From SAR92 clade bacterium H921 (GTDB lineage: Bacteria; Pseudomonadota; Gammaproteobacteria; Pseudomonadales; Porticoccaceae): a DNA stretch of 64,000 nucleotides. The position numbers and the translations under genes are program-made. Below are positions 30,425 through 50,531 of the stretch, one piece after another (position 1 is the first letter of the stretch; the number at the start of each line of letters is the position of its first letter). Below the pieces are notes generated by a model. That model did no database searches and was not told where the DNA came from. It saw only the letters and a program-made list of their open reading frames with translations. Where the stretch lies: contig JAOALD010000001.1 in assembly GCA_025153755.1 (NCBI GenBank), positions 930,001 through 994,000 on the forward strand. The letters are read 5' to 3'.

Positions 30425-30697
30425 GGAGAGGAGCTCCTTTGTTGGGAAAACTACCGATAGTTAAGATACTTCTAATGATCGGAATTTGAATCCCGATATC
30501 TTCGTTAAATGACTATAAAATTGGGTGTCTGAGACCGGCTTATGCTGTTCTAAAAACGACTCTAGGCCACGTTATACATGGGATTGCGGCAATGGCGCTA
30601 GATGATATGCGGCTGTCGTAATTGCGTCTTAGCCGTTCAGAATTGGCGGTTACACTGCCGCTAGTAAACACTCAAGACTAGGCACTGAGAGATAGGT
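30425..30697. promoter_or_regulatory. Divergent promoter region between fhs and the demethylating flavoprotein gene
   Basis: The 273-base gap must carry the start signals for both genes. It contains the short inverted repeats AACTA/TAGTT (about 30449-30462) near fhs and GCGG/CCGC (about 30645-30661) about 40 bases before the flavoprotein start. Either could be an operator. I could not identify promoter elements with confidence. Confidence 0.4.
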
Positions 30698-33211
30698 ATG
30701 AAAACAACTGCAAAAGTAGTGGTAGTAGGCGGTGGCGTGGTTGGAGTTAGTACCCTCTACCATCTTGCTAAAAAAGGCTGGACAGACGTGGTTTTAGTGG
30801 AACGCAAAGAGTTGACCTCGGGATCCACATGGCACGCTGCAGGGCTTTTGCCGCTGTTCAACATGAGTTACTCAGTGGGAAAATTGCACCAGTATTCAGT
30901 GAATTTTTACCATGAACTTGAAGCTGAGACTGAACAAAATGTTGGCTTTAGTGTGGTTTCGAATATCCGTCTCGCGGCTAATCAGGATCGCATGGACGAA
31001 TATAAGTACTACTCCGGTGTCGCTCAGACCGTTGGGGTCGATGTTAAGTTTTTAACGCCAGAGCAAGTGTTAGAAGCCTGGCCCATGGCTAATATTGAAG
31101 GCATTATTGGTGCCATACAGCATCCTGACGATGGTTATATTCAGCCCGCCGATCTTACTCAGGCGCTGGCAAAGGGCGCTCGTGGGCGAGGCGCAGAAAT
31201 TTATCGCAATACAACAGTTTTAGATATTGAACAGCAGCCAGATGAAAGCTGGATTGTTAAGACCGATAAAGGTGACATTCACTGTGAACATGTGGTTTCC
31301 TGCACCGGTAATTTCGCTCGCAAAACAGGTGCAATGGTCGGCTTAGATCTTCCGGTTATTCCAGTTGAGCATCAGTATATTGTGACTGACCCGCACCCAG
31401 ATGTTATTGCTCGCAAGGCTGCGGGGCTGCCAGAGCAGGCCGTACTGCGAGAGTCAGATGCAGGGTATTACCTGCGTGAGGAAGCTGGTGGCTTTATTCT
31501 TGGGCCCTACGAAGAAAATGCGCCCTGCTGCTATGTGGATGGTCCCAGCGATCAGTCAGAATACGAGCTATTTAACGGTGATCTCGATCGTTTGATGCCT
31601 CATATCGAAGCCTGTATCAACAGGGTGCCTGCTTTTGCTGAGGTGGGCGTAAAGACGGTTTACAACGGTGCTATTGCCTACACACCAGATGGGAACCCAA
31701 TTGTTGGTCCAGCTTGGGGTTTGAAAAACTTCTGGCTCAATGAGGGTCATAGTTTTGGAATCACCGCTGCCGGTGGCGCTGGTTGGCAGCTAGCGGAATG
31801 GATTGTTGATGGAGAGCCTACAGTAGACATGATGGGCGTCGATCCAAGGCGCTTTGGGCCCTATGCTACGCGCGGTTATCTGCGTAGCAAAAACGAGGAA
31901 GCCTACGATCATGTGTTTAAGAACCATTATCCCGATGAGGAGCGAGGCGCAGCCCGGCCGTTAAAGACCGCCCCTTGCTACGACCGCATGAAAGATTTAG
32001 GTGCCGTTTTTGGTTCTGTCTATGGTTGGGAGCGGCCTAACTGGTTTGCTCCTCCAGGATATTCTCTATCTGAAGATGATCTCGACAAGCCAGATACCCT
32101 GTGGAATAAAAACCACTCTAAGGCTTTGGATGATGGCCGTATTGTTGAAAAGAACTCTTTTCGGCGCTCTAACTATTTTGAGTTTGTAGGGCAGGAGTGC
32201 CGCCATGTCAATGAGCATGTTGGAGTTCTGGATATGTCGGCATTTTCAAAATGCACGGTGACTGGTCATGGGTCAGAAGCCTGGTTAAACAGTATCGTAG
32301 CCAATAATGTACCCAAGACTGTGGGGCGCATTGGCCTGTGCCATATGCTTTCGAAAAATGGTGGCGTGCGGGCAGAATTTACGATTTATAAGCGCGCTAG
32401 AAATAGCTATTACCTTGTATTTGCCGGCGCTCAAGAGCGTCACGACTGGGATTACCTGACCAAACTTGCACCTACCGATGGCTCCGTTAACCTGCAAAAG
32501 ATCACTACGCAGATGGGAGTGCTGGTGCTCGCAGGGCCGAGGTCTCGCGATGTACTCCAAAAGCTCACAGATACCGATCTATCTAATGATAGTTTCAAAT
32601 GGCTGACAGGCAAATCTATCAATGTAGGCTATGCCCAGGCAGAGGCGCTGCGAGTTAACTTTGTCGGTGAGCTTGGGTGGGAATTGCATCATCCCATTGA
32701 GATGCAAAATTATATCTTTGACGAGCTGATGAAGGCTGGCGCTGAATTTGACATTAAGCCTTTTGGCATTCGCGCGATGGATAGCATGCGCATTGAAAAA
32801 TCCTATCGTTTGATCCCGCGTGAGATGTCCATTGAGTACTCGGCGCTCGAATCTGGACTAGATCGTTTCGTAAAGCTTGATAAAGAAAGTGGCTTTGTTG
32901 GTCAAAAAGCGCTAATTGCTTGGCAACAAAGAGGCTTCGATAATTGTTTTGCCACTATGGAAGTGCACGGTGTAATCGATGCAGATGCCCGTGGATCTGA
33001 AGGCCTCTATAAGGACGGCGAGTTGGTGGGTCGAGCTACCTCCGGTGGTTTCGGTTTCCGCACTAACAAGTCCTTGGCACTGGGTCTAGTGAAAACTGCC
33101 TATGGAGCCGTAGGCACAGAATTAGAAATAGAAATTCTCGGTGATCGCTACCGAGCCACAGTGATCGAAGAATCACCGTTTGATGCTGACAATAGTTGTT
33201 TAAGAGCCTAG
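30698..33211 (+). CDS. Dimethylglycine/sarcosine dehydrogenase-like flavoprotein (FAD + GcvT domains)
   Basis: Family members oxidatively demethylate dimethylglycine, sarcosine or similar N-methyl compounds and pass the methyl to tetrahydrofolate as methylene-THF. The 837-residue protein has an N-terminal FAD fold (VVVGGGVVGVSTLYHLAKKG, about residues 8-27). SGSTWHAAG at about 42-50 carries the His that holds FAD covalently in the mammalian enzymes. The second half (about residues 430-830) is a GcvT-like folate-binding domain (LNFVGELGWELHHP-type motif, seen here as NFVGELGWELHHP). The substrate cannot be fixed from sequence. The flanking fhs and corrinoid operon support betaine breakdown. 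Electrons would go to an ETF encoded elsewhere. Confidence 0.85.
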   Translation: MKTTAKVVVVGGGVVGVSTLYHLAKKGWTDVVLVERKELTSGSTWHAAGLLPLFNMSYSVGKLHQYSVNFYHELEAETEQNVGFSVVSNIRLAANQDRMDEYKYYSGVAQTVGVDVKFLTPEQVLEAWPMANIEGIIGAIQHPDDGYIQPADLTQALAKGARGRGAEIYRNTTVLDIEQQPDESWIVKTDKGDIHCEHVVSCTGNFARKTGAMVGLDLPVIPVEHQYIVTDPHPDVIARKAAGLPEQAVLRESDAGYYLREEAGGFILGPYEENAPCCYVDGPSDQSEYELFNGDLDRLMPHIEACINRVPAFAEVGVKTVYNGAIAYTPDGNPIVGPAWGLKNFWLNEGHSFGITAAGGAGWQLAEWIVDGEPTVDMMGVDPRRFGPYATRGYLRSKNEEAYDHVFKNHYPDEERGAARPLKTAPCYDRMKDLGAVFGSVYGWERPNWFAPPGYSLSEDDLDKPDTLWNKNHSKALDDGRIVEKNSFRRSNYFEFVGQECRHVNEHVGVLDMSAFSKCTVTGHGSEAWLNSIVANNVPKTVGRIGLCHMLSKNGGVRAEFTIYKRARNSYYLVFAGAQERHDWDYLTKLAPTDGSVNLQKITTQMGVLVLAGPRSRDVLQKLTDTDLSNDSFKWLTGKSINVGYAQAEALRVNFVGELGWELHHPIEMQNYIFDELMKAGAEFDIKPFGIRAMDSMRIEKSYRLIPREMSIEYSALESGLDRFVKLDKESGFVGQKALIAWQQRGFDNCFATMEVHGVIDADARGSEGLYKDGELVGRATSGGFGFRTNKSLALGLVKTAYGAVGTELEIEILGDRYRATVIEESPFDADNSCLRA

Positions 33212-33342
33212 GTTTTGGGAGCGGCGTAGACTGGTACCCTGGAGTCGTTACGTTAAATGCGTTTTAGGCAAAAGGGTAACAAAATCGCGCGTAGTTGATG
33301 TGAGTATAACGAGGCCTGAGGGCTCTCAACTGGAAGAAGAAT

Positions 33343-34896
33343 ATGACTGAAGTAACGAAGCGAAGAAGAGCGGGGCGAGAGGCTGGTGGCCGCGAAGGGC
33401 GTCGAGCAGCGCGGCAAAATAACGTGCAGAAATCTGTGCCATTTATCGAGCGTAAGATTCCCTATTTCGAGTATTTGAGCGAAGAAAGCCTACAGATAAT
33501 AGAGGCCAATGCTGATATTCTGCTGGAGGAAATTGGTATCGACTTTCTCGATGACCCAGAAGCGCTTCAAATGTGGAGTGACGCCGGTGCAGATGTACAG
33601 GGTACTAGAGTGCGTTTCCCTCAGGGCTTATGTCGATCACTTATTCAGGCGACCGCCCCCAAAGAATTTGTTCAGCATGCACGCAATCCAGAGCGCAATG
33701 TAATAATTGGCGGCAAGCGCACCGTTTTAGTACCTGCCTATGGCTCACCCTTTGTCCATGATATTGATCAGGGACGCCGCTACGCAACTATTGAAGACTT
33801 TCAGAATTTTGTAAAACTAGCCTATATGGCCCCAGGTCTGCACCATTCTGGCGGAACCATCTGTGAGCCGGTGGATCTACCGGTCAATAAGCGCCATTTC
33901 GATATGGTCTATAGCCACTTTAAATACAGCGATAAGCCGCTGATGGGGTCTGTCACTCACCATGAGCGTGCCCAGGATACCGTTGATATGGCCAAGCTGG
34001 TGTTTGGCGATGATTTTGTAGACCAAAACTGCGTACTTACTAGTTTGATTAATGTGAATTCGCCCATGACCTACGATGGCACTATGCTGGGGTCATTAAA
34101 GGTTTATGCACGCAATAATCAGGCTACGGTAATTTCACCATTTATTCTTGCTGGGGCTATGTCGCCGGTGACTCCTGCCGGCACTGTGACACAGATTTTG
34201 GCAGAAGCTATGGCAGGCATAGCCTTTACGCAGCTTTGCCGTCCAGGGGCTCCAGTTATCTTTGGGACCTTCGCCGCGGCCGTATCAATGGCGACAGGTG
34301 CACCAACCTTTGGTACCCCAGAGCCCAGCCAGATTATCTACGTGGCGGCGGCTTTGGCGCGCCGGTTAGGCGTGCCCTTTAGAAGTGGTGGCGGGCTTAC
34401 AGGTTCTAAGTTACCAGATGCTCAGGCGGCCTATGAAGCGGCCAACACCTTGCAAACCAGCGCATTGGCAGGAGTAAACTTTATGCTCCACACCGCTGGA
34501 TGGTTAGAGGGTGGTCTGGCTATGGGTTACGAGAAGTTTATTATGGATTGTGATCAGTCAAGCATGATTGAAGTACTGCTCACCGGAATGGATATGTCAG
34601 AAAATAGTCAGGCGCTGGATGCAGTGCGCGAAGTGGGCCCAGGTAAACATTACCTGGGCTCTGCTCATACTTTGAAAAACTTTGAGACCGCATTTTACCG
34701 CTCTACAGTCGCTGATAATAATAGCTATGAGCAGTGGCAAGTGGACGGCTCATTGGATTGCGCCCAGCGAGCTAATGGGCTGTGGAAAAAGATGCTTAAC
34801 GAGTATCAGGCTCCCGCTATTGATCCATCGATTGATGAGGCATTGCTAGATTTTATGGCTCGTCGTAAAGGCTCATTTGAAGATAGAGATTACTAA
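33343..34896 (+). CDS. MttB-family corrinoid methyltransferase (non-pyrrolysine type)
   Basis: MttB-family enzymes move a methyl group from a quaternary or tertiary amine to a corrinoid protein. The 517-residue frame is uninterrupted and ends in TAA. It therefore belongs to the branch without an in-frame amber (pyrrolysine) codon, whose studied members act on glycine betaine and similar quaternary amines. It has the (beta/alpha)8-type features HHSGGTICEPVDLPVNKRHF region (seen as SGGTICEPVDLPVN) and FGTPEPSQIIYVAAALARRL. The N-terminus is strikingly Arg-rich (RRRAGREAGGREGRRAAR). A GGAAG site precedes the ATG. It opens an eight-gene, tightly packed operon. Glycine betaine is my inferred substrate. 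Confidence 0.85.
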   Translation: MTEVTKRRRAGREAGGREGRRAARQNNVQKSVPFIERKIPYFEYLSEESLQIIEANADILLEEIGIDFLDDPEALQMWSDAGADVQGTRVRFPQGLCRSLIQATAPKEFVQHARNPERNVIIGGKRTVLVPAYGSPFVHDIDQGRRYATIEDFQNFVKLAYMAPGLHHSGGTICEPVDLPVNKRHFDMVYSHFKYSDKPLMGSVTHHERAQDTVDMAKLVFGDDFVDQNCVLTSLINVNSPMTYDGTMLGSLKVYARNNQATVISPFILAGAMSPVTPAGTVTQILAEAMAGIAFTQLCRPGAPVIFGTFAAAVSMATGAPTFGTPEPSQIIYVAAALARRLGVPFRSGGGLTGSKLPDAQAAYEAANTLQTSALAGVNFMLHTAGWLEGGLAMGYEKFIMDCDQSSMIEVLLTGMDMSENSQALDAVREVGPGKHYLGSAHTLKNFETAFYRSTVADNNSYEQWQVDGSLDCAQRANGLWKKMLNEYQAPAIDPSIDEALLDFMARRKGSFEDRDY

Positions 34897-34923
34897 GTTA
34901 CACCTACTTGAGGGCTACATCCC

Positions 34924-35622
34924 ATGTCTGATGAAGACGATATTGTACTAGCGGAATTATCTGATGATGAGCTAGTTCTGCAAATGCATGATGATCTGTA
35001 TGACGGTTTAAAAGAAGAGATCGAGCAGGGTACGCAGATACTTCTCGATCGTGGCTGGACTGCCGAGAAGGTTCTCTCCGTTGCACTAGTTGATGGAATG
35101 ACCGTTGTCGGAATCGACTTTCGAGATGGTATCCTGTTTGTGCCGGAGGTGCTGTTAGCGGCAAACGCAATGAAAGGTGGCATGGCCATCTTAAAGCCGC
35201 TACTGGCCGAGACTGGAGCTAAGCCTGTGGGTACCATGGTTATAGGCACGGTGAAAGGAGATATCCACGATATAGGCAAAAATCTTGTGGCTATGATGAT
35301 GGAAGGTGCTGGCTTTGAGGTTCACGATATGGGTATCAATAACTCAGTTGAAGACTACATAGCGACGTTGGAACGTCACCAGCCAGATATTCTTGGTATG
35401 TCTGCGCTACTGACTACTACCATGCCTTATATGAAAGTGGTGATTGATGCGCTTAAGGATCAGGGCCTTCGGGATAAGTATATTGTCATGGTTGGTGGCG
35501 CGCCGCTGAACCAAGAGTTTGGTGATGCCGTAGGTGCTGATGCCTATTGCCGTGATGCTGCGGATGCAGCAACCACGGCTATTCGATTAGTATCTGAGCG
35601 AAGATTGCTAGAGACGGCCTGA
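34924..35622 (+). CDS. Corrinoid (B12-binding) methyl carrier protein
   Basis: This protein would carry the methylcobamide between the MttB-like and MtrH-like enzymes. The 232 residues comprise an N-terminal helical cap domain (about residues 1-95, with LVDGMTVVGIDFRDGILFVPEV) and a Rossmann B12-binding domain. The B12-binding domain has the base-off/His-on signature GDIHDIGKNLVAMMMEGAGF (His at about residue 117) and later GMSALLTTTMPYM and VGGAPLN. The family includes MtmC, MtbC, MttC and the MetH cobalamin domain. GAGGG precedes the ATG. Its stop overlaps the next start (TGATG). Confidence 0.9.
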   Translation: MSDEDDIVLAELSDDELVLQMHDDLYDGLKEEIEQGTQILLDRGWTAEKVLSVALVDGMTVVGIDFRDGILFVPEVLLAANAMKGGMAILKPLLAETGAKPVGTMVIGTVKGDIHDIGKNLVAMMMEGAGFEVHDMGINNSVEDYIATLERHQPDILGMSALLTTTMPYMKVVIDALKDQGLRDKYIVMVGGAPLNQEFGDAVGADAYCRDAADAATTAIRLVSERRLLETA

Positions 35623-36254
35623 TGTTAAAAACAGCGCCCCAAGCAAAATTATTAGTGATTGCTTGCGGTGCGTTGGCCCATGAGATTGTTTGGTTGCAAA
35701 AACAAAGTGGCTGGGGCCAGATAGAAGTACAATGTCTGGATGCCGAATTGCATAACAGACCGAAACTGATTCCGCAGAAGTTACGCGCAACACTAGAAAA
35801 AAATCGCGGTCAGTATCAACATGTTTTTATCGGTTATGGTGACTGTGGTACTGGTGGTGAGATCGATCGAATTATTGAGCAGGAGTGGCAAGCCGGTAAT
35901 AAAAAAATCGAACGATTACCCGGTGCTCACTGTTACTCGTTTTATGCAGGAGAGCAGAGGTTTAATGATCTCGCCAATCAAGAGTTGGGGACTTTTTACC
36001 TCACAGACTTTTTAGTTGAGCACTTTGAGCGGCTAGTAGTAAGAGGCTTAAAACTCGATAAATTTCCAGAGTTGAGAGAACAGTATTTCGCTAATTATAA
36101 ATTAGTGGTTTATCTATCTCAGCGAGTGGATTCTGAATTAGTACCCAAGGCTAAAGCAGTTGCAAAATTTTTGGGCCTTGGCTTTCGCCATGAGTACAGC
36201 GGCTATGGCGATTTAGAAACTACCCTAAAACAGCAAGTTTTAAAATTGAGATAG
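35622..36254 (+). CDS. DUF1638 protein of the corrinoid operon
   Basis: The 210-residue soluble protein matches the DUF1638 pattern: LLVIACGALAHEI at the N-terminus, VFIGYGDCGTGGEID at about residues 67-81, and GAHCYSFYAG at about 100-110. Cys and His residues in these conserved stretches could bind a metal or a cofactor. No function is established to my knowledge. It shares bases with the corrinoid protein stop, so the two are made together. It may help load, repair or reduce the corrinoid, but that is inference only. Confidence 0.75.
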   Translation: MLKTAPQAKLLVIACGALAHEIVWLQKQSGWGQIEVQCLDAELHNRPKLIPQKLRATLEKNRGQYQHVFIGYGDCGTGGEIDRIIEQEWQAGNKKIERLPGAHCYSFYAGEQRFNDLANQELGTFYLTDFLVEHFERLVVRGLKLDKFPELREQYFANYKLVVYLSQRVDSELVPKAKAVAKFLGLGFRHEYSGYGDLETTLKQQVLKLR

Positions 36255-36265
36255 GTGGTAATCCT

Positions 36266-36598
36266 ATGCAAAAAATTGAAGTTTTTTGGCGCGATATTCC
36301 GGCACAGGTGCTGGTCAAAAGTGGTCGCGTGCGCGGCAAGACCATGCTTAGCCATCGCTTTCAGGCAGCTATTGACCGTGCGGCTATGCGTGCAGGAAAA
36401 GGCGGCAGTGATGAATATCTTGAGGACTGGCGTCGTATCACCACAACAATTGAAGTTACGCCTAACGGTAAGAGCGATAGCGAGCTAACGCCGCAGGATC
36501 TTGCTCAGCAATTTGCCGATGCTATCGAGGCCTCCTATTCCAATGCGGATATTGCTGCACTTATTGCCAGCAAAGGCATTGCGGCGCAGTCACCGTGA
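36266..36598 (+). CDS. Small 'virulence factor' family protein
   Basis: The 110-residue protein begins MQKIEVFWRDIPAQVLVKSG and continues with a charged helical part (RFQAAIDRAAMRAGKGGSDE). It matches a small family named 'virulence factor' in domain databases, a label that says little about what it does. No catalytic motif, signal peptide or membrane segment is seen. AGGTGG lies seven bases before the ATG. It overlaps the MetV-like start by 4 bases. Position points to a role in the corrinoid-to-folate methyl path. Confidence 0.7.
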   Translation: MQKIEVFWRDIPAQVLVKSGRVRGKTMLSHRFQAAIDRAAMRAGKGGSDEYLEDWRRITTTIEVTPNGKSDSELTPQDLAQQFADAIEASYSNADIAALIASKGIAAQSP

Positions 36599-37053
36599 AA
36601 ATCGTGCGTTATTGGTCGGTCAATAATGCCCGCTGGTTGAGCTGGCTCTATAGGGGCTTAGAAACCTGTCTGGCAACCTTGTATCCGCTGTTGAAACCTC
36701 TGGGGTACCAACGCTTAGATCGCGGATTCGCTGGAGTCGAATCGCTGGTGAAGGGGTTTTTGTTTGACTCAAAATCCTGTGGCCAGTGCACTTTGGGAGA
36801 GACAGGAATGGCCTGTCCTATGAACTGCCCCAAGACTCTACGCAATGGTCCCTGTGGAGGCGTTAGAGCTAATGGCCACTGTGAGGTGGATCCGAGTATG
36901 GTATGTGTTTGGGTGACGTCATGGGAAGGTAGCAAACGTATGGGCAATCCTGAATCTACTATCCAGATTATTCAGGCTCCAGTCGATGTCAGACTTAAGG
37001 GGACCAGCGCCTGGTTACGCGCGGTGCGAAAAAGACTGGGAGTGGATAAATGA
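36595..37053 (+). CDS. MetV-like Cys-rich partner of methylenetetrahydrofolate reductase
   Basis: The 152-residue protein has a basic N-terminal half and a Cys-rich block: CGQC, ACPMNC, NGPCGG, NGHC and MVCVW (about residues 60-104). This is the MTHFR C-terminal domain family (MetV in acetogens). There it pairs with MetF and binds iron-sulfur or zinc centres that connect MetF to electron carriers. The start is GTG, overlapping the previous stop. The end overlaps the metF start (ATGA). A MetVF pair in place of the lone NADH-dependent MetF suggests a dedicated enzyme for oxidising methyl-THF. Confidence 0.8.
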   Translation: MKIVRYWSVNNARWLSWLYRGLETCLATLYPLLKPLGYQRLDRGFAGVESLVKGFLFDSKSCGQCTLGETGMACPMNCPKTLRNGPCGGVRANGHCEVDPSMVCVWVTSWEGSKRMGNPESTIQIIQAPVDVRLKGTSAWLRAVRKRLGVDK

Positions 37054-38036
37054 TCTTTGATGATGAGCCCGCAATAGGAGAGAACCTGCCCATATTACCC
37101 GGCCATTCCTCGCCCGGCCGCTTTGAGCGCGTGTTGCGGGCTGGACAGTTTGCTGTGACAGCTGAAATAGCACCCCCAGATTCTGCCGACCCTCAGGAAG
37201 TCTATGCAAGAGCTGCTCTTTTTGATGGCTATGTGGATGCCATTAATGCCACTGATGGCTCGGGCGCTAACTGTCATATGTCCAGTGTAGGTATGTGCGC
37301 ACTTCTGACGCGATGTGGCTATTCAATGATTATGCAAATCTCCGCCCGGGATAGAAACCGCATAGCGATGCAGGGTGATGTGCTTGGTGCCTCTGCCATG
37401 GGCGTGTCCAATATTCTCTGTTTAACTGGCGATGGTGTGCAGGGCGGAGACCATCCGGAAGCCAAGCCAGTTTTTGATATGGACTGCATGACGAGTCTGC
37501 AGATGTTGCGTGGTATGCGCGATGATAGTCAGTTTCTCAGTGGTCGCAAAATCAGTTCGCCACCGCAAATATTTTTAGGGGCGGCAGCTAATCCTTTTGC
37601 ACCGCCGTTTGATTATCGGCCCCTTCGATTAGCGAAAAAAGTCGCCGCCGGTGCTCAGTTTGTGCAGACCCAATACTGTTTTGATATTGAGATGTTGAAA
37701 GACTATATGTCAAAAGTGCGCGATATGGGTTTGCATGAGAAAGTATTTATTTTACCTGGAGTTGGTCCACTGGCTTCGGCTAAATCTGCACAGTGGATTC
37801 GTAATAATGTGGCGGGGGTGCATATTCCTGATGCCATTATTAAGCGTTTAGCGGGTGCGCAGGATCAGAAGCAGGAAGGCGTTAATATCTGCATCGACAT
37901 GGTAAATGAAATTCGTGAAATAGAAGGGGCCAGCGGAGTGCATATTATGGCCTATCGCCAGGAAGAGCGAATCGCGGAAATAGTAGAAAAAACAAAGGTG
38001 CTGGGCGATAGAACTCCCTGGCATCCGACTCGTTAA
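37050..38036 (+). CDS. metF: Methylenetetrahydrofolate reductase (MetF family)
   Basis: MetF interconverts methylene-THF and methyl-THF on an FAD-containing (beta/alpha)8 barrel. The 328 residues include FAVTAEIAPPDSADPQEVY, the ATDGSGANCHMSS strand, ISARDRNRIAMQGDVLGA (flavin side) and VAAGAQFVQTQYCFD, all typical of the family. The preceding gene supplies the MetV-like subunit and overlaps it by 4 bases. In this operon it would run in the oxidising direction, from methyl-THF to methylene-THF. A separate biosynthetic MetF may exist elsewhere in the genome. Confidence 0.9.
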   Translation: MIFDDEPAIGENLPILPGHSSPGRFERVLRAGQFAVTAEIAPPDSADPQEVYARAALFDGYVDAINATDGSGANCHMSSVGMCALLTRCGYSMIMQISARDRNRIAMQGDVLGASAMGVSNILCLTGDGVQGGDHPEAKPVFDMDCMTSLQMLRGMRDDSQFLSGRKISSPPQIFLGAAANPFAPPFDYRPLRLAKKVAAGAQFVQTQYCFDIEMLKDYMSKVRDMGLHEKVFILPGVGPLASAKSAQWIRNNVAGVHIPDAIIKRLAGAQDQKQEGVNICIDMVNEIREIEGASGVHIMAYRQEERIAEIVEKTKVLGDRTPWHPTR

Positions 38037-38051
38037 ATTCTGGAGAACAGC

Positions 38052-38945: not shown

Positions 38946-38960
38946 TAGACTTTGCAAGAT

Positions 38961-40961: not shown

Positions 40962-41065
40962 CTCTTGCATTGATGATTAAAAAAGGCTTCTAAAAAATAA
41001 GTCTACTGATCTATACTTTTAATAAGACACTCAATAAGAGTGCTGTGAAAAAGAGGTATTCTAAA

Positions 41066-42049
41066 ATGTCAGATGAAATCACTAAAGATTCATTGGATCC
41101 CATAGCAGTAATTCATGTGGGGTTTTTACTCATGCCTGAATATACCCTGAGCACCTTCTCCAACGCGGTAGGTATGCTACGTATGGCAAATCGTCTGAGT
41201 GAAAGAGATCTTTATCGTTGGTCAATTTACAGTGTTGATGGTGAACCTGTAGTGTCCAGTGCAGGCCTAGAAATAAAGATTGATAGCGCCCTGAACCAGG
41301 CCGAAGCAGTCAACATGGTCTTAGTCTGTGGTGGTTACAATATCAAAAATTATTGCACTAAATTAGTACTCGAATACCTACGTAGTTTTGCCAATATAAA
41401 GACTGCGCTCGGCGGACTTTGCACTGGTAGCTATGTGCTCGCCTGTGCCGGTTTGTTGGATGGATATCGCTGTACCATTCACTGGGAAAATCTTGCAAGC
41501 ATGCGCGAAGAATTTCCTAAATTACAACTATCCTCTAGCCTCTTCGCTATTGATCGAGATCGTTATACCTGCTCTGGCGGTATTAGTTCAATTGATCTGA
41601 TGTTGAATTTAATAGCCAGTATTCATGGTCATCAGTTAGTTCAACAGATATCTGAACAATTCGCCTGTGATCGAGTACGTACGGAGAAAGATGCTCAGCG
41701 AGCGCCTCTTCATTACCTTATTGGTGCCAGTCAGCCGCGGCTCGTGGATGCGGTGACATTAATGGAAAGCAACATTGAAGAGCCGCTTACTCTAGATGAG
41801 GTGGCCAACTACGTAGGTATCTCAAGGCGTCAGTTAGAGCGTCTATTTAATCGATATTTACACTGTGCACCGTCTAGATATTATTTAGAATTACGTCTCT
41901 CCCGAGCGCGCTTATTATTGTTGCAGACTTCTATTCCAGTAATTGATGTGGCCATTAGCTGTGGCTTTTCTACGGCGCCGCATTTCAGTAAATGTTACAG
42001 CGACCTATATGGTAAGCCACCGAGTAATGAGCGCCGAGCGGTGCGGTAA
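41066..42049 (+). CDS. GlxA-family AraC-type transcriptional regulator (first)
   Basis: The 327-residue protein has an N-terminal DJ-1/PfpI-like domain (VGFLLMPEYTLSTFSNAVGM; GGLCTGSYVLACAGLLDGY with the conserved Cys) and a C-terminal AraC HTH pair (LDEVANYVGISRRQLERLF). This layout matches regulators of carnitine, betaine and dimethylglycine breakdown such as GbdR, so it may sense one of these. The start used has AGAGGT eight bases upstream; a GTG 21 bases earlier is possible. It lies about 100 bases after the activase gene and converges with a second regulator of the same family. Confidence 0.88.
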   Translation: MSDEITKDSLDPIAVIHVGFLLMPEYTLSTFSNAVGMLRMANRLSERDLYRWSIYSVDGEPVVSSAGLEIKIDSALNQAEAVNMVLVCGGYNIKNYCTKLVLEYLRSFANIKTALGGLCTGSYVLACAGLLDGYRCTIHWENLASMREEFPKLQLSSSLFAIDRDRYTCSGGISSIDLMLNLIASIHGHQLVQQISEQFACDRVRTEKDAQRAPLHYLIGASQPRLVDAVTLMESNIEEPLTLDEVANYVGISRRQLERLFNRYLHCAPSRYYLELRLSRARLLLLQTSIPVIDVAISCGFSTAPHFSKCYSDLYGKPPSNERRAVR

Positions 42050-42072
42050 AAAAAAGGGCGTTGGCTAGCTGG

Positions 42073-43110
42073 TTAGGCACGGTATTCGGTGGGTTTTTTT
42101 TTGAAGGCGGCACGGAATGCACGGGAGAAATGGGCGGTGTCAGCAAAGCCAGTTTCCTGGGCTATATCGGTAATCATGCGCTCAGTATTTTGCAGTAACC
42201 AGAGTCCGTAATTTAAACGAATTTTACGGTAAAACTTTTGTAAGCTATCGCCAGTTTCACTGATAAATAATCGCTCGAGTTGACGCTTAGAGATACTGAG
42301 ACGATTAGCAATTTCATCGGTTGACAGGGGCCGACTTAAATTTTGTTCGAGTAATAACAGCGCTCGTATAACCCACTTGTTGTTTACCTGGTAATCAGAC
42401 GCTGGTTGAGGTTGAGGGGCATTAGCCGGTCGCGGGCTATCCATCACCAAAATACGCAGGCTCTTACGTGCCCAGCTCTGTCCCAAATGGCGCTCAATAA
42501 TGTATGCCGCGAGATCTGCAGCCACTGCGCCACCAGCACAGGTAATACGGTCACCATCATCAACAAATAGCTGTTCGGCTACGGGGATAACATCAGCGTA
42601 GCGGTCAGCGAGGTCTCGGTAGTGAAACCAGCTCACACAGCAACGCCGCTGATGCATAAGGCCCGCTCTAATCATTGCAAAGGATCCTGTGCAAAGGCCT
42701 ACAATCGGCACATGGGCTCTATCTGCCTGTTGTAGGTAATTAATCACATGCTGGCTACCGTGCAATGTTTCTGTAAGTAGTCCACCGACCACTACAATAT
42801 AGTCAAACTGTTGTGGATCTCGATAGGTTTCCCAGGGTTTTACCTGCACGCCAGAGCTGGATGAAACGGGCGCTAGGTTTGGTCCCATTACCGTCCACTG
42901 GCAATTTATCTGTTGGCTTTGATCTCCCTCATCTGCGGCCAGTCGCAGCGCGTCAACAAAGGCCGAAAAAGGCAGTAGCGTAAAACTTGGCATCAGCACA
43001 AACCCCACTGATAAATTGGCTGATATTTTGTTGTTACTGGCTTTTTTAGGCATCTTGACGGCCAATGGTTGAGTACGAAGTCTGATCCGCCAGTGTAGAT
43101 TTGACGGCAT
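42073..43110 (-). CDS. GlxA-family AraC-type transcriptional regulator (second)
   Basis: This second regulator of the same layout has 345 residues. The DJ-1-like domain shows [20 protein letters not shown] and [20 protein letters not shown]. The AraC HTH shows [19 protein letters not shown] and a second helix pair ending [10 protein letters not shown]. It is divergent from soxB and tail to tail with the first regulator, 23 bases apart. It may control the sarcosine oxidase operon. The start is uncertain: a Met 19 codons in (base 43053) begins the conserved part more closely, and neither has a clear ribosome site. Confidence 0.87.
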
Positions 43111-43277
43111 TTTTATACAACAAATACACCCATTATCTTGAATTTAACTGCCATATTGATGAATTTTCGAGCATTTGTCGCTTTTTAATGCTCAGATTGT
43201 CAGTTTTATTCTATCGATGTTACGAGTCAAATTGGTCAAATAGTGCCCTGACACCGCGATTGAGTAGAGTGACGACA

Positions 43278-44528
43278 ATGAAAAAATATTCCGCCTTCAG
43301 CCTGCTAAAAAATGCACTGAGTTACCATGAAAATTGGCAAAAAGTGTGGCGTAGCCCGGTTCCCAAAAAGGACTACGATGTGATCATTGTAGGTGGTGGT
43401 GGTCATGGTCTGGCAACAGCCTATTATCTGGCTAAAGTGCATGGAATTACCAATATTGCAGTTATTGAAAAAGGTTATCTGGGCGGTGGTAATACAGCTC
43501 GTAATACTACAATTATCCGCTCTAACTACCTGTGGGACGAAGCAGCGCAACTCTATGACCTATCGCTCAAATTATGGGAGGGGCTTAGCCAGGAGTTAAA
43601 CTACAACGTCATGTTTAGTCAGCGGGGCGTGCTTAATTTGGGGCACAACTTGCAAGATATGCGGGATATTGAACGCCGGGTGAATGCCAATCGTCTAAAT
43701 GGTATTGACGGCGAAGTGGTAAGCCCTGAGAGGATTAAACAGATAGCTCCATTAATTAATATTTCTCGGCAGAGCCGCTATCCAATTCTTGGCGCTTCGT
43801 GGCAACCTCGGGGTGGTACAGCACGTCATGATGCTGTTGCATGGGGTTATGCGCGGGGCGCAGATGCATTGGGTGTCGATCTTATTCAGCAGACTGAGGT
43901 GATCGGTATTCGTCGTAAAAATGGCGCTGTTGTCGGCGTTGAAACTAGCAATGGGTTTATAGGTGCGTCCAAGGTCGCCTGTGTAACAGCGGGTAACTCT
44001 GGAGTGCTCGCAGCAATGGCGGGCCTACGATTGCCCGTAGAGTCGCGGCCTCTGCAAGCACTGGTTTCTGAGCCGGTAAAACCCTGCTTAGACACGGTGG
44101 TTATGTCTAACGCGGTGCATGGTTACATTAGCCAGTCTGACAAAGGTGATTTGGTTATTGGTGCTGGTGTAGACAGTTATAACGGCTATGGTCAGCGAGG
44201 TTCTTTCAACGTGGTAGAACATACCGTCCAGGCTATTTGCGAATTATTTCCGGCGTTCAGCCGTGTCAGAATGAACCGCCAATGGGGTGGAGTTGTAGAC
44301 ACCTGTCCAGATGCCTGTCCCATCATCAGCAAGACTTCAGTTCAGGGGCTGTTCTTTAACTGCGGCTGGGGAACAGGCGGCTTCAAGGCTACGCCAGGTT
44401 CCGGTTATGTGTTTGCAGATACGGTTGCCAATGATCGACCCCATCCATTAGCCGCCGCTTTTACCGTTGATCGATTTAATACTGGCGCACTCATTGATGA
44501 ACACGGCGCTGCCGGTGTAGCCCACTAG
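43278..44528 (+). CDS. soxB: Sarcosine oxidase beta subunit
   Basis: SoxB holds FAD (non-covalent) and covalent FMN in the heterotetrameric enzyme that converts sarcosine, O2 and THF to glycine, H2O2 and methylene-THF. The chosen start gives 416 residues beginning [20 protein letters not shown], as in the family. An upstream in-frame ATG at 43101 lies in the intergenic region and is unlikely. The dinucleotide motif [17 protein letters not shown] lies at about residues 35-51. The FMN-linking His is probably in [31 protein letters not shown] marks the C-terminal FAD contact. It opens soxBDAG. Confidence 0.93.
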
Positions 44529-44542
44529 AGACGAGCACAAAT

Positions 44543-44833
44543 ATGTTATTAATCTATTGTCCCCATTGCCTTGAGCACCGTGAAGAGGAAGAGTTTAGCT
44601 ACGGTGGAGAAGCTCATATCGTGCGACCCTTAGAGCCTGAAGCTTTAAATGATAAGGAGTGGGGCGACTACTTGTTTTTCCGAACTAATCCGCGCGGTAT
44701 TCATCATGAGATGTGGTATCACGCCTTGGGCTGTCGCCGTTATTTCAATGTCACACGTAACACCCTGAGCTATGAAATTTTGGAAACCTATAAAACCGGT
44801 ACCCAGCCAACGATCACCGGAGATAATCCATGA
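44543..44833 (+). CDS. soxD: Sarcosine oxidase delta subunit
   Basis: SoxD is the small zinc-binding subunit. The 96 residues open with LLIYCPHCLEHREEEEFSYG and have a second metal-site part, MWYHALGCRRYFNVTRNT, in keeping with a Cys/His zinc site. The length is typical. It lies 14 bases after soxB and overlaps the soxA start by 4 bases. Confidence 0.93.
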   Translation: MLLIYCPHCLEHREEEEFSYGGEAHIVRPLEPEALNDKEWGDYLFFRTNPRGIHHEMWYHALGCRRYFNVTRNTLSYEILETYKTGTQPTITGDNP

Positions 44834-47832
44834 GCCAGAATAGATTAGACACTCATAACGGTGTAGCAATTGACTTTAGCTTCAACGGAAAGGGCTATAA
44901 AGGGCTAGCTACTGATACATTGGCGTCTGCGCTTTTGGCTAACGGAGTTGATGTTGTAGGCCGTAGTTTTAAATATGCCCGCCCCAGGGGCATATTTGGT
45001 CATGGAGCCGAAGAACCCAACGGGATTATTCAGTTGGGCTCAGGCTCTGGGACAGTCCCCAATCTTAAAGCCACCCAGGTAGAACTCTATCAGGGGCTGG
45101 AGGCATACAGTGTCAATGGTTGGCCTAGTGTTAACTTCGATCTGATGGGGCTGATAGGCGCGTTTGGCCGTTTGATGCCGCCTGGGTTTTATTACAAAAC
45201 ATTTATGTATCCGCAAAAACTATGGATGACTTATGAGCACTTTATCCGTAAGGCCGCGGGTTTGGGTGCAACCCCTGTTGAGGCAGATCCAGATAGTTAT
45301 GACAAGCTAAATCAGCACTGTGATGTGTTAGTGGTTGGAGCCGGACCTGCAGGGCTAGTTGCAGCTAGAGAAGCTGCGCGCACGGGTGCAAGAGTTATTA
45401 TAGCCGATGAACAGTCACAGTTTGGTGGTAGCCTGTTAGCGTCTACACAGCAGTTGGACGGCCTAACTGCGCCTCTTTGGATTGCCAGTCTAGTGTCGGA
45501 GCTTAAGGCTTTTAGCAATGTTCAGATGTTGCCACGCAGCACGGTATTTGGCTATTACGACCACAATTTTTTAGCCATTTTAGAACGTCGTACAGACCAT
45601 CTGGGGCTCACGGCTGCCAACGGGGTGCGCCAGCGGTTACACAGAGTGCGAGCGGCCCAAGTGGTGCTGGCAACAGGAGCCCTTGAGCGACCCTTGGTAT
45701 TTGCCCACAATGATATTCCCGGTGTGATGTTGGCCTCCTCAGTCTCTACCTATGTCAATCGTTATGGCGTTGCACCAGGTAATAAGATGGTGGTTTTCAC
45801 CACCAATGACAACGCCTATCAGACTGCCCTAGACTGGCATCAGACTGGGCGTGAGATAGTAGCCTTGGTAGATACTCGTAGTAATCCCAGCGGAGATATT
45901 GTAGATGCAGTAAAAGCGTTGGGTATAGAGGTAATCGCCGGTCATGGGGTCATTGAAGCCCATGGCAGAACGCGAGTGAAGCGCGCACTGATTGCACCAA
46001 TCAATGAAGCTGGCACCCAGGTAACCGGTGCAGTTCGACGATTGACCTGTGATCTGATTGCCTGTTCAGGAGGCTGGAGCCCTGCAGTTCACCTAAGTTC
46101 ACACACAGGTGCTAAGCCACAATGGGATGAGGATATTGTAGGTTTTAGGCCTGGAAATTCTAAACAGCAGGAGCGCTCTGCAGGTGCCTGTAGAGGAACC
46201 TTTAACTTAATCGGTTGCTTATCGGAGGGTGCCAGTGCAGGTGCCCAAGCGGCCATGTTGAGCGGTCACGGAGATGGTAGCCTGCAGTTCCCAGCCACTG
46301 CAGTTGATGAATACGCGGAGCAGCCGCAGCAAGCTTTATTTTTGGTGCCGCATACTAAAACTACCAGCCGCGCTCCCAGTCAATTTGTAGATTTCCAGTT
46401 AGATGTTAGTGCCAGTGGTATCGAACTGGCCGTGCGTGAGGGATTTGAGTCTGTTGAGCATGTAAAGCGTTACACGGCACTGGGTTTTGGTACTGATCAG
46501 GGTAAGTTGGGTAATATTAATGGCATGGCAATTTTGGCTAATGCCCTGAATCAAAGTATTGCCGAGACTGGGACCACTATTTTTAGGCCCTCTTATACCC
46601 CGACTACTTTCGGTGCTATTGCTGGCCGCGATGTGAATAACCTATTTGATCCCGAGCGTTATACGGCCGTGCATCGTTGGCATCAAGAACAGGGCGCTAA
46701 GTTTGAAGATGTTGGTCAGTGGAAGCGACCCTGGTATTTCCCCCAGCAGGGTGAAACCATGCAACAGGCGGTCGATCGTGAGGGTTTAGCCGTGCGAAAT
46801 AGTGTGGGTATTTTAGATGCCAGCACACTGGGTAAAATTGATATTCAGGGCCCTGATGCCGCCGAGTTTATCACGCGCATGTATACCAATTCATACCTTA
46901 AGTTAGCCCCAGGGAAATGTCGTTATGGCGTGATGCTAAAAGAGGATGGAATGATTTTTGATGATGGTGTCTGCGCCTGTTTGGGAGATAACCACTATCT
47001 TATGTTCACCACTACTGGCGGCGCAGCCGGGGTTTTGGCATGGCTGGAACTTTGGCAGCAAACCGAATGGCCAGAGTTGCAAGTGTACTTCTCATCGGTA
47101 ACTGATCACTGGACCACCGCAACGGTTACAGGCCCCAATGCCCGCAAGGTTATTGCTAAGGTTTGTAATGATATTGATCTGTCTAAAGAAGCCTTCCCAT
47201 TCATGGATTGGCGCAATGGCACAGTTGCTGGCGTTAGGGCCCGAGTATTCCGTATCAGCTTTACTGGAGAACTCTCCTACGAAGTAAATGTGCCCGCCCA
47301 CTATGGTCGGCATGTATGGGAGGCTCTTGTCGCTGCGGGGGAAGAATTTAATATCACTCCCTATGGTACTGAAACAATGCACGTCCTGCGAGCTGAAAAG
47401 GGCTTTATCATAGTCGGTCAAGACACCGATGGTTCAATGACACCGGCTGATATGAATATGGACTGGGTGGTAGGTAAAAACAAGGCCTTTAGTTTCATAG
47501 GCAAACGATCTTTACAGCGCAGTGATACTATTCGGGCTGATCGCAAGCAACTAGTTGGCTTAAAGCCCCTAAACAAAACGGACATCCTGCCAGAGGGCGC
47601 TCAGATTGTATTTGACCCTAAACAGAAGATACCTATGTCTATGCAGGGCCATGTCACCTCAAGTTATTACAGTGCCAATCTGGGATATTCCATAGCCCTT
47701 GCAGTGATCAAAGGCGGCCATGACAGAATAGGAAACCTAGTTTATTGCCCCTTGGCCGATGGCAGTATCATTACGTCAGAAATTGTCAGTTCCGTCTTTT
47801 ATGACCCGACAGGAGAGCGTCACCATGTCTAA
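44830..47832 (+). CDS. soxA: Sarcosine oxidase alpha subunit
   Basis: SoxA is the large subunit with NAD+ and the folate-binding domain. The 1000 residues comprise an N-terminal ferredoxin-like fold without cluster cysteines (about 1-100, GRSFKYARPRGIFGHGAEEP). An NAD/FAD-type dinucleotide fold follows (VVGAGPAGLVAAREAARTGA, about residues 165-184). A C-terminal GcvT-like domain carries KPWYFPQQGE-type (RPWYFPQQGE) and FTGELSYEVNVP motifs. CGGerich sites are not seen. A GGAG ribosome site lies inside soxD. The end overlaps soxG by 8 bases. Confidence 0.94.
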   Translation: MSQNRLDTHNGVAIDFSFNGKGYKGLATDTLASALLANGVDVVGRSFKYARPRGIFGHGAEEPNGIIQLGSGSGTVPNLKATQVELYQGLEAYSVNGWPSVNFDLMGLIGAFGRLMPPGFYYKTFMYPQKLWMTYEHFIRKAAGLGATPVEADPDSYDKLNQHCDVLVVGAGPAGLVAAREAARTGARVIIADEQSQFGGSLLASTQQLDGLTAPLWIASLVSELKAFSNVQMLPRSTVFGYYDHNFLAILERRTDHLGLTAANGVRQRLHRVRAAQVVLATGALERPLVFAHNDIPGVMLASSVSTYVNRYGVAPGNKMVVFTTNDNAYQTALDWHQTGREIVALVDTRSNPSGDIVDAVKALGIEVIAGHGVIEAHGRTRVKRALIAPINEAGTQVTGAVRRLTCDLIACSGGWSPAVHLSSHTGAKPQWDEDIVGFRPGNSKQQERSAGACRGTFNLIGCLSEGASAGAQAAMLSGHGDGSLQFPATAVDEYAEQPQQALFLVPHTKTTSRAPSQFVDFQLDVSASGIELAVREGFESVEHVKRYTALGFGTDQGKLGNINGMAILANALNQSIAETGTTIFRPSYTPTTFGAIAGRDVNNLFDPERYTAVHRWHQEQGAKFEDVGQWKRPWYFPQQGETMQQAVDREGLAVRNSVGILDASTLGKIDIQGPDAAEFITRMYTNSYLKLAPGKCRYGVMLKEDGMIFDDGVCACLGDNHYLMFTTTGGAAGVLAWLELWQQTEWPELQVYFSSVTDHWTTATVTGPNARKVIAKVCNDIDLSKEAFPFMDWRNGTVAGVRARVFRISFTGELSYEVNVPAHYGRHVWEALVAAGEEFNITPYGTETMHVLRAEKGFIIVGQDTDGSMTPADMNMDWVVGKNKAFSFIGKRSLQRSDTIRADRKQLVGLKPLNKTDILPEGAQIVFDPKQKIPMSMQGHVTSSYYSANLGYSIALAVIKGGHDRIGNLVYCPLADGSIITSEIVSSVFYDPTGERHHV

Positions 47833-48460
47833 TGAGATTAAGCAAGAAACACCGCTGTGGCATTTTTTGTCCTCATTTAACAAAGGCCTCAGCAATGGAG
47901 GACTATTAAATGCCGAGACTGAATGTGGTGTGGTGGTGAAAGAAGCACCTCTAAGTGCCCACCTTATCTTGCGCGGTGATAGTAGGGATGCCGTGTTTTG
48001 TAGCGCCGTCTCCGATACGCTAGGTGTTGAATTACCGCTAAAGGTATGTACCTACCATCAACAGAACAATATCAGTATTTATTGGCTCGGCCCCGATGAA
48101 TGGATGATTATAGAGGTTGGTGGTCAGTCTCACATAATAGAGTTAGCTTTACGCAAAGCCCTTAAAGGACATATGGCTATCGTTGATGTAAGTGGGGGCC
48201 AGACCTGTATTAACTTACGCGGAACCGGTGTCGCAACTGTGCTTAAAAAATCAACTGTCTATGATCTTGAGGCCTGGGATGCGGCTACCTCAAATGCTGG
48301 CCGAGTAGTTCAAACTTCCTTTGCCAAGTCCTCTGCAATTATAAGTAATAGGTTCGACGGTTCCTATGATCTGATTATAAGGCGCAGTTTTGCAGACTAT
48401 ATAGCGCAGTGGTTATTGGATGCCGGTGAGGAATTTGGCTGCCGAATCGAACAGGGGTGA
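47825..48460 (+). CDS. soxG: Sarcosine oxidase gamma subunit
   Basis: SoxG is the 211-residue accessory subunit, related to the GcvT fold. It keeps YWLGPDEWMIIE (about residues 82-93) and a later TSFAKSSAIISNRFDGSYDL, both usual in the family. The start used begins MSNEIKQETPLWHF and is preceded by AGGAGAGCG; an upstream in-frame start lies inside soxA. It ends the operon. A stable hairpin starts 11 bases after the stop. Confidence 0.9.
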   Translation: MSNEIKQETPLWHFLSSFNKGLSNGGLLNAETECGVVVKEAPLSAHLILRGDSRDAVFCSAVSDTLGVELPLKVCTYHQQNNISIYWLGPDEWMIIEVGGQSHIIELALRKALKGHMAIVDVSGGQTCINLRGTGVATVLKKSTVYDLEAWDAATSNAGRVVQTSFAKSSAIISNRFDGSYDLIIRRSFADYIAQWLLDAGEEFGCRIEQG

Positions 48461-48471
48461 GGAAAAAAAGC

Positions 48472-48516
48472 GGTGCTAAGGCGTTTGAAATTACCGCTAC
48501 TTAACGCCCCAGCACC
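48472..48516 (+). other. Long interrupted hairpin after soxG
   Basis: GGTGCT pairs with AGCACC and GGCGTT with AACGCC, separated by an AA/CC internal loop, around a 17-base loop. There is no T-run after it, so it is not a standard intrinsic terminator. It may protect the 3' end of the soxBDAG mRNA or mark a processing site. Confidence 0.5.
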
Positions 48517-50456: not shown

Positions 50457-50492
50457 TGATCGGCCGCGTCCTTTGGTCCATACCAGCCAGTC

Positions 50493-50528: not shown

Positions 50529-50531
50529 GCA

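What the first reader, a model, noticed from the sequence alone, without database searches (positions are those of the whole stretch)
30698..48460. A complete corrinoid-plus-flavoprotein route for stripping methyl groups from a quaternary amine in an O2-respiring bacterium
In the sequence: a non-pyrrolysine MttB-like enzyme, a corrinoid carrier, an MtrH-like enzyme, MetVF and a RACo-like activase in one operon. A dimethylglycine/sarcosine-dehydrogenase-like gene and soxBDAG flank it. From family knowledge: aerobes usually remove the first betaine methyl with GbcAB or betaine-homocysteine methyltransferase; neither is in this window. Inference: the corrinoid set does the first step, the flavoproteins do the next two, and all methyls end on THF. 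Such a full chain in a complex I-bearing aerobe is poorly described.
Basis: partly seen in the sequence, partly recalled or inferred. Interest (0 to 1): 0.8.

Follow-up and report, generated by a model that had tools for sequence, protein, structure and literature searches.

The report
Aerobic B12-dependent glycine betaine demethylation operon
A marine SAR92-type bacterium carries, in one stretch of DNA, the genes needed to strip the methyl groups off glycine betaine with a vitamin-B12 protein; this route was described in other marine bacteria in 2025, so the find is a new example with a few informative twists rather than a new kind of system.

Summary
The genes are real and where stated. 30698-48460 holds a dimethylglycine dehydrogenase, a non-pyrrolysine MttB-family enzyme (MtgB), corrinoid protein (MtgC), DUF1638, a small PF13769 protein, MetV, MetF, a methyl-THF:corrinoid methyltransferase (MtgD; AcsE-like, not MtrH), the reactivase RACo, two GbdR-like regulators and soxBDAG; formate-THF ligase lies just upstream. 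The genome (98% complete) has no GbcA over its model's cut-off, no stand-alone PF02574 (BhmT-type) gene and one MttB gene. But it is no longer poorly described: Mausz et al. (PNAS, Sept 2025, PMC12478193) showed this route genetically in Ruegeria pomeroyi and mapped such clusters in marine Alpha-, Gamma- and Deltaproteobacteria. Different here: a full MetH and an ordinary second MetF, no MtgE, so the cluster looks purely catabolic; two corrin-synthesis markers tested (CobN, CobI/CbiL) are missing or below cut-off, so B12 is probably imported. New lead: the misnamed 'virulence factor' PF13769 accompanies one clade of RACo (37 of 39 tree rows) and is fused to RACo in Terrarubrum. Substrate and PF13769 role are untested.

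The parts
28757..30424 (-). formate-tetrahydrofolate ligase (FTHFS), likely C1 exit: formyl-THF to formate plus ATP
   Evidence: NF010030 911.5 bits over cut-off 652; keeps this place in 4 of 4 Porticoccaceae/SAR92 loci L059, L060, L061, L077
30698..33211 (+). dimethylglycine dehydrogenase (DAO + FAO_M + GCV_T domains)
   Evidence: Pfam; best solved relatives are named dimethylglycine dehydrogenase, 609 bits, against 321 for N,N-dimethylglycine oxidase; motif WHAAG at residue 45; that this His carries FAD is recalled
33343..34896 (+). MtgB: glycine betaine:corrinoid methyltransferase (inferred substrate), MttB family, no pyrrolysine
   Evidence: PF06253 755 bits; PDB 4yyc 758 bits, 2qne 422, 9yce 'glycine betaine methyltransferase' 421, TMA methyltransferase 7xcl 121
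34924..35622 (+). MtgC: corrinoid-binding methyl carrier, DxHxxG at residue 113
   Evidence: PF02310 and PF02607; NF047996 MtgC 192 bits, below its cut-off of 370; motif
35622..36254 (+). DUF1638 protein, genetically linked elsewhere to corrinoid reactivation
   Evidence: PF07796 94 bits; invariant C15, H44, C75, H103, C104 in 34 sequences; phenotype in Phaeobacter from PMC5764234
36266..36598 (+). PF13769 'Virulence_fact' small protein; proposed partner of RACo
   Evidence: 59 bits over 25; in 36 of 41 core loci; fused to RACo in Terrarubrum
36595..37053 (+). MetV-like subunit (DUF5981), probably Fe-S/Zn
   Evidence: PF12225 90 bits; 7 invariant Cys (62, 65, 74, 78, 87, 96, 104) in 20 sequences
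37050..38036 (+). MetF-like methylene-THF reductase, probably run as methyl-THF oxidase
   Evidence: PF02219 127 bits; a second MTHFR elsewhere scores 261 bits
38052..38945 (+). MtgD: methyl-corrinoid:THF methyltransferase (AcsE/MeTr type, PF00809)
   Evidence: NF005719 362.5 bits over 259; PDB 4o0q, 1q7m, 2yci
38952..40961 (+). RACo/AcsV/RamA-type ATP-dependent corrinoid reductive activase
   Evidence: RACo_C_ter 309 bits, middle and linker regions, Fer2; NF040756 373 bits, below 800
41045..42049 (+). GbdR-like AraC regulator
   Evidence: NF052371 441.9 bits, cut-off 480
42073..43110 (-). second, more distant GbdR-like regulator
   Evidence: NF052371 182 bits, cut-off 480
43101..44528 (+). 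soxB, heterotetrameric sarcosine oxidase beta; true start probably downstream
   Evidence: TIGR01373 716 bits over 529
44543..44833 (+). soxD, delta subunit
   Evidence: TIGR01374 122 bits over 116.5
44830..47832 (+). soxA, alpha subunit
   Evidence: TIGR01372 1452 bits over 1164
47759..48460 (+). soxG, gamma subunit; true start probably downstream
   Evidence: TIGR01375 99.6 bits, below 143.95

Best explanation
This is an aerobic, B12-dependent glycine betaine catabolic cluster of a SAR92/Porticoccaceae-type gammaproteobacterium, of the MtgBCD kind. MtgB moves one methyl from glycine betaine to the Co(I) corrinoid of MtgC, leaving dimethylglycine. MtgD passes the methyl to tetrahydrofolate. 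MetVF oxidises methyl-THF to methylene-THF. DMGDH and SoxBDAG then take the other two methyls to methylene-THF, giving glycine. Methylene-THF is oxidised to formyl-THF and the formate-THF ligase next door releases formate and ATP; a formate dehydrogenase is elsewhere in the genome. RACo, with DUF1638 and probably the small PF13769 protein, re-reduces corrinoid that has been oxidised to Co(II). Because the genome has its own MetH and a second MetF and no MtgE, the cluster serves breakdown only, not methionine synthesis. Shown: gene identities, synteny, genome-wide search results. Inferred: substrate, direction of MtgD and MetVF, regulation by GbdR, role of PF13769.
For: Family assignments. MtgB is closer to glycine betaine methyltransferases (2qne, 9yce; 421-422 bits) than to trimethylamine methyltransferase 7xcl (121 bits); its best solved match is 4yyc, 758 bits, deposited as a putative trimethylamine methyltransferase. 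2QNE is named the glycine betaine methyltransferase MtgB in PMC9842639 (passage). Context suggests the substrate: GbdR-like regulator at 442 bits, DMGDH and sarcosine oxidase. No GbcA over cut-off, no stand-alone PF02574, one PF06253 in the genome. MetH 2139 bits over 1497; second MetF 261 bits; formate dehydrogenase 938 bits over 666; two ETF-QO matches; four full-length BCCT transporters. Order FTHFS-DMGDH-MtgB-MtgC-DUF1638-PF13769 kept in 4 of 4 Porticoccaceae/SAR92 loci L059, L060, L061, L077. An Azoarcus plasmid has MtgC-DUF1638-PF13769-MetV-MetF-MtgD-RACo next to glycine betaine ABC genes, ETF and a GlxA-type regulator. Knock-outs of mtgC and mtgD in R. pomeroyi do not grow on glycine betaine even with methionine (PMC12478193).
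Against: No substrate test. Relatives of MtgB in Eubacterium prefer proline betaine, butyrobetaine, carnitine or phosphocholine (PMC12478193 discussion), and sequence alone does not settle specificity. MtgC, RACo and the GbdR-like protein score below the curated cut-offs of the closest equivalog or exception models. In many relatives MtgB stands without the rest: 46 of 80 loci had MtgC nearby and 22 of 80 DMGDH or Sox at my thresholds (flanks end at 10 kb or contig ends), so the neighbourhood is not fixed. The nine Rieske oxygenases of unknown substrate could in principle include a divergent betaine oxygenase.
Confidence: 0.85

Rival explanations
1. The corrinoid set demethylates a different quaternary compound (carnitine, proline betaine, homarine, DMSP or similar), and DMGDH/Sox serve dimethylglycine and sarcosine from another source.
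For: The MttB superfamily is substrate-diverse (PMC12478193 discussion). Other genomes of the order carry up to seven PF06253 matches, so members probably differ in substrate.
Against: Here there is a single PF06253 gene, flanked by DMGDH, Sox and a GbdR-like regulator, and no other first-step enzyme was found.
Confidence: 0.1
2. The set is a split methionine synthase (MtgCDE type) that also demethylates betaine, as in Ruegeria and Phaeobacter.
For: Same modules MtgC and MtgD, RACo and DUF1638 (PMC12478193, PMC5764234).
Against: No MtgE: the only PF02574 place in the genome is the N-terminal part of a complete MetH of 1222 aa. The same-genus genome G159 also has one PF02574 match, in a 1238-aa frame.
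Confidence: 0.04
3. On one part of the system only: PF13769 is a neighbour with no role in corrinoid chemistry, kept by linkage. (Not exclusive of the best explanation.)
For: No PF13769 in the Paracoccus methylovorus plasmid cluster although its RACo lies in the PF13769 clade; 3 of 10 plasmid records with an MtgD of 58% identity or more have no PF13769 match. Price et al. name only the RamA-like protein and DUF1638 as reactivation genes in Phaeobacter (passages).
Against: Present in 10 core loci in which no MetV or MetF was found, and fused to RACo in a locus where no MetVF or MtgD is annotated.
Confidence: 0.3

Closest known systems
MtgBCD glycine betaine demethylation of Ruegeria pomeroyi and other marine bacteria (Mausz et al. 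2025, PMC12478193; read: first three of six parts, discussion, passages)
   Same: PF06253 MtgB, PF02310 MtgC, PF00809 MtgD, RamA-type activase, DUF1638, extra MetF, downstream DMG and sarcosine genes; co-location in Gammaproteobacteria is reported there, without mtgE nearby
   Different: Here metH and a second metF are present and MtgE was not found, so no dual role; all steps plus FTHFS in one 20-kb block; the paper's main text has no hit for MetV or 'virulence' and none for SAR92 (listing)
MtgABC of Desulfitobacterium hafniense (Ticak et al. 2014; known here through PMC12478193 and PMC9842639, itself not read)
   Same: Non-pyrrolysine MtgB, corrinoid MtgC, methyl transfer to THF
   Different: Anaerobe; its THF step is MtgA, described as lacking sequence identity with known structures (PMC7154762, abstract start), whereas here it is a PF00809 AcsE-type enzyme
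Split methionine synthase of Phaeobacter inhibens (Price et al. 2018, PMC5764234; passages read)
   Same: MtgC/MtgD modules, RamA-like protein, DUF1638
   Different: No homocysteine module here; MetH does that job
MetVF-type methylene-THF reductase of acetogens (PMC8760232; passages read)
   Same: MetF with a cysteine-rich MetV
   Different: Presumed oxidative direction in an O2-respiring cell; electron acceptor unknown

Membership tests
Aerobic MtgBCD glycine betaine demethylation system | PF06253 MtgB without pyrrolysine | tested here: met
   755 bits; open frame; Leu352 at the pyrrolysine position
Aerobic MtgBCD glycine betaine demethylation system | Separate PF02310 corrinoid protein MtgC and PF00809 MtgD | tested here: met
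Aerobic MtgBCD glycine betaine demethylation system | RamA/RACo activase and DUF1638 | tested here: met
Aerobic MtgBCD glycine betaine demethylation system | Genes for DMG and sarcosine demethylation and methyl-THF oxidation (often co-located) | tested here: met
Aerobic MtgBCD glycine betaine demethylation system | Coupling to methionine synthesis through MtgE (as in R. pomeroyi; not universal in the paper) | tested here: not met
   one PF02574 place, inside MetH; the paper notes 28 of 239 metH genomes also carry mtgBCD
Aerobic MtgBCD glycine betaine demethylation system | Activity on glycine betaine, or mutant unable to use it | not testable with these tools
   needs enzyme or genetics
GbcAB betaine monooxygenase route | GbcA over its model's cut-off in the genome | tested here: not met
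   best 130 of 670 bits among 9 Rieske alpha genes; G000 has no match at E 1e-60
Betaine-homocysteine methyltransferase route | Stand-alone PF02574 protein | tested here: not met
Pyrrolysine-dependent TMA methyltransferase | In-frame UAG read as pyrrolysine | tested here: not met
   CTT at 34396; Rfam PYLIS_3 match is read as sequence similarity only
MtrH family | Match over the family cut-off | tested here: not met
   26.5 bits against 287; PF00809 instead
MetVF type II MTHFR | Cysteine-rich MetV next to MetF, no RnfC2 or Hdr subunits adjacent | tested here: met
   neighbours
MetVF type II MTHFR | Bound flavin and Fe-S, ferredoxin-linked activity | not testable with these tools
   needs purified protein

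The most novel reading that the evidence does not exclude
PF13769, annotated as 'virulence factor', is a third component of corrinoid reactivation: a small protein without cysteines that works with one clade of RACo activases, perhaps docking RACo on MtgC or handling the Co(II) state under air. It would mark an O2-tolerant reactivation module (RACo + DUF1638 + PF13769) that lets aerobes run an 'anaerobic' methyltransferase.
Probability: 0.55. Interest if true: 0.55.

Novelty: new member of a known kind. Interest (0 to 1): 0.36.

Why it matters
[quoted passage not shown] The cluster places its B12-dependent demethylation in the SAR92/Porticoccaceae lineage, in a form separated from methionine synthesis and probably dependent on imported B12. 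It also points to two testable gaps in the published scheme: what accepts electrons from a MetVF-type reductase running backwards in an aerobe, and what the small PF13769 protein does for the corrinoid activase.

Tried and rejected
A pyrrolysine reading suggested by the Rfam PYLIS_3 match was rejected: the frame is open and the codon is CTT. MtrH was rejected for the PF00809 protein. GbcA: weak matches of nine Rieske proteins rejected, all at most 130 of 670 bits. Mutual exclusion of GbcA and PF06253 in the order was looked for and not shown: GbcA over cut-off in 1 of 16 genomes with PF06253 (G102) and 24 of 178 without. PF06253 itself is patchy, 16 of 194 genomes of the order.

Fold comparison led nowhere: the PF13769 model (mean pLDDT 89.6) has no PDB match better than E 0.25, and the DUF1638 model (92.8) none at E 0.001 or less, best 0.0045 with TM 0.24. 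The MetV profile found no solved chain at E 0.01. Electron partners for MetVF in the genome were not searched beyond ETF-QO. CobN was not found; the two CobI/CbiL matches were 64.6 and 55 bits against a cut-off of 163; other corrin genes and B12 transporters were not searched. MetE was not searched.

Dropped rows and limits: the RACo tree left out five of 44 locus proteins shorter than 500 aa (L110, L123, L130, L134, L135); four of these five have PF13769 nearby, L130 (9-kb contig) not. The PF13769 alignment A2 used 33 of 39 sequences available, DUF1638 A3 34 of 44, MetV A4 20 of 32. The MtgB tree used 25 of 80 named loci and 29 loci of the order plus the window, with several long branches. 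In one search 60 of 121 records were listed.
Full report
What is there. The window lies at G000:C1:930001-994000 of a 2.57-Mb, 98.2% complete genome. Its MtgB is 92% identical to two Porticoccaceae MAGs and 89% to SAR92 MED-G29, so it is a SAR92/Porticoccaceae-type gammaproteobacterium. From 28757 to 48460 the genes are: formate-THF ligase (minus strand), DMGDH, MtgB, MtgC, DUF1638, PF13769, MetV, MetF, MtgD, RACo, GbdR-like, GbdR-like (minus strand), soxB, soxD, soxA, soxG. Genes 33343-40961 are packed with gaps between -4 and 27 bases, and 131 bases separate DMGDH from MtgB. Complex I genes lie upstream, e.g. a NuoG-type protein 14194-16944 and an antiporter-like subunit 19331-21181.

First step enzyme. 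The MttB-family protein has no pyrrolysine: Leu352 (CTT, 34396) aligns with the X of MttB 7xcl. It scores 758 bits with 4yyc (deposited as putative trimethylamine methyltransferase; its source organism is not in the call), 422 with 2qne, 421 with 9yce (named glycine betaine methyltransferase) and 121 with trimethylamine methyltransferase 7xcl; 2QNE is MtgB according to PMC9842639 (passage). In a 55-row tree it sits with SAR92/Porticoccaceae rows. This supports a quaternary amine, most likely glycine betaine; specificity among betaines is not settled by sequence.

Alternatives in the genome. One PF06253 place. One PF02574 place, which is the start of a 1222-aa MetH, 2139 bits over a cut-off of 1497, so neither BhmT nor MtgE was found. 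Ten PF00848 matches in nine genes, best GbcA score 130 against 670. A second MTHFR elsewhere scores 261 bits with PF02219 against 126.5 for the one in the cluster, and is taken as the ordinary MetF. Formate dehydrogenase is over its cut-off, two ETF-QO matches are present, and there are four full-length BCCT transporters plus one partial match. CobN was not found and CobI/CbiL is below cut-off, which suggests imported B12; transporters for B12 were not searched.

How it most likely works. Shown: gene content and the search results above. Inferred from family knowledge: MtgB takes one methyl from glycine betaine to MtgC; MtgD moves it to THF; MetVF oxidises methyl-THF; DMGDH and SoxBDAG put the remaining methyls on THF as methylene; the ligase at 28757-30424 run in reverse gives formate and ATP; RACo keeps the corrinoid reduced. 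GbdR as a sensor of betaine and dimethylglycine is recalled from Pseudomonas work, not from a call.

What is already known. Mausz et al. 2025 (PMC12478193; I read the first three of six parts, the discussion and passages) show by proteomics and knock-outs in R. pomeroyi that MtgC and MtgD are needed for growth on glycine betaine and for methionine synthesis. They report mtgBCD, often near DMG and sarcosine genes, in marine Alpha-, Gamma- and Deltaproteobacteria, mtgE not nearby, and only 28 of 239 metH genomes with mtgBCD. Price et al. 2018 (PMC5764234, passages) linked a RamA-like protein and DUF1638 to B12 reactivation.

What differs. Full MetH, a second MetF and no MtgE make this look like a break-down-only version. 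The same-genus genome G159 also has one PF02574 match, in a 1238-aa frame. Among the 16 PF06253 genomes of the order, 9 have a PF02574 match in a frame of at least 1217 aa; 9 have one or more in frames of 273-441 aa; 4 of these have both kinds (G003, G047, G076, G107, the last with the short one beside its MtgB-family gene). G184 has a single match in a 368-aa frame near a contig end and is left open; G052 (75% complete) has none. Coexistence with MetH is thus common in this order, though not every PF06253 protein counted is an MtgB.

Neighbourhood. Of the 80 best loci, 41 hold MtgC (60% or more identical) and MtgD (55% or more) within reach. Of these 41: RACo 40, DUF1638 39, PF13769 36, MetV 29, MetF 29, DMGDH 8, SoxB 8, and the homocysteine (PF02574-like) domain 14. 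Thresholds are mine and flanks end at 10 kb or at contig ends. DUF1638 and PF13769 outlast MetVF: 10 core loci have PF13769 and no MetV or MetF match. L093 lacks RACo, DUF1638 and PF13769 together; three core loci (L093, L109, L112) have MetV without PF13769.

The PF13769 lead. In plasmid records PF13769 is found 8 times; in 7 of 8 an MtgD at least 58% identical lies within 2 kb (four are Sinorhizobium, three of these of nearly equal length and probably near-duplicates), and in the eighth, Terrarubrum flagellatum, PF13769 (residues 8-92) is fused to a complete RACo in a 760-aa protein next to MtgC and DUF1638. One deposited genome could hold a frame error, so the fusion needs a second case. 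In a 43-row RACo tree, one clade (100/100) has PF13769 nearby in 37 of 39 rows, the fusion counted by construction; the other clade (100/100, four rows) in 0 of 4, one of these on a 6.4-kb contig. A profile search found PF13769 in none of the loci counted as lacking it. Against the idea: Paracoccus methylovorus has the cluster and a RACo inside the PF13769 clade but no PF13769 on that plasmid (its chromosome was not searched); two further Paracoccus plasmids with MtgD also gave no PF13769 match, making 3 of 10 records with MtgD of 58% or more; L082 lacks it within 10 kb; and the Phaeobacter fitness study, in the passages read, names only two reactivation proteins. The protein has no invariant cysteine, so it is unlikely to carry electrons. 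Neither PMC12478193 nor PMC5764234 contains the word 'virulence' in its main text. A search for PF13769, pfam13769, Virulence_fact, 'conserved virulence factor C' or DUF1638 found 30 papers; the 15 listed hold neither PF13769 nor pfam13769, the other 15 were not seen.

MetVF. The cluster's MetV has seven invariant cysteines in 20 sequences. Purified acetogen type II MetVF does not use NAD(P)H (PMC8760232, passages). What accepts the electrons when such an enzyme runs as an oxidase in an aerobe is open; the Azoarcus cluster next to ETF genes hints at ETF, which may equally serve its neighbouring FAD-dependent oxidoreductase.

Verdict. Real, well supported in function class, substrate likely but untested; new member of a known kind. 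Interest is modest, with one lead (PF13769 and RACo) worth a bench test.

Noticed in passing
window 34396-34495: Rfam PYLIS_3 (pyrrolysine insertion element) reaches its gathering score (42 over 38) inside a gene whose frame holds no stop; it starts exactly at the codon aligned with pyrrolysine, so the family model can mislabel non-pyrrolysine mttB genes.
   Followed up: yes
L151:6989-9271 (NZ_CP091854.1): PF13769 domain fused to the N-terminus of a complete RACo in Terrarubrum flagellatum, after MtgC and DUF1638 genes; MetV, MetF and MtgD are not annotated there.
   Followed up: partly
L152 (Azoarcus sp. KH32C plasmid pAZKH): The corrinoid cluster lies on a plasmid typed as mobilizable, together with glycine betaine ABC transporter, ETF, purU and a GlxA-type regulator, but no MttB-family gene is annotated in the 18 kb shown.
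   Followed up: no
window 42073-44528: soxB and the second GbdR-like gene overlap as called (43101-43110); the real soxB start is probably near its family match at residue 62, leaving a divergent promoter region.
   Followed up: no
window 50532-52874: A 780-aa protein with CotH kinase and Ig-like domains beside a low-GC stretch (48001-52000, GC 0.41), with no evident tie to the cluster.
   Followed up: no
G000: Nine Rieske-type oxygenase alpha genes in a 2.57-Mb genome, none matching an NCBIfam equivalog over its cut-off: their substrates are unknown.
   Followed up: partly
G107:C56:65828-68454: In a genome of the same family a stand-alone PF02574 (MtgE-like) gene sits back to back with an MtgB-family gene although a MetH-length PF02574 frame is present too.
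   Followed up: no
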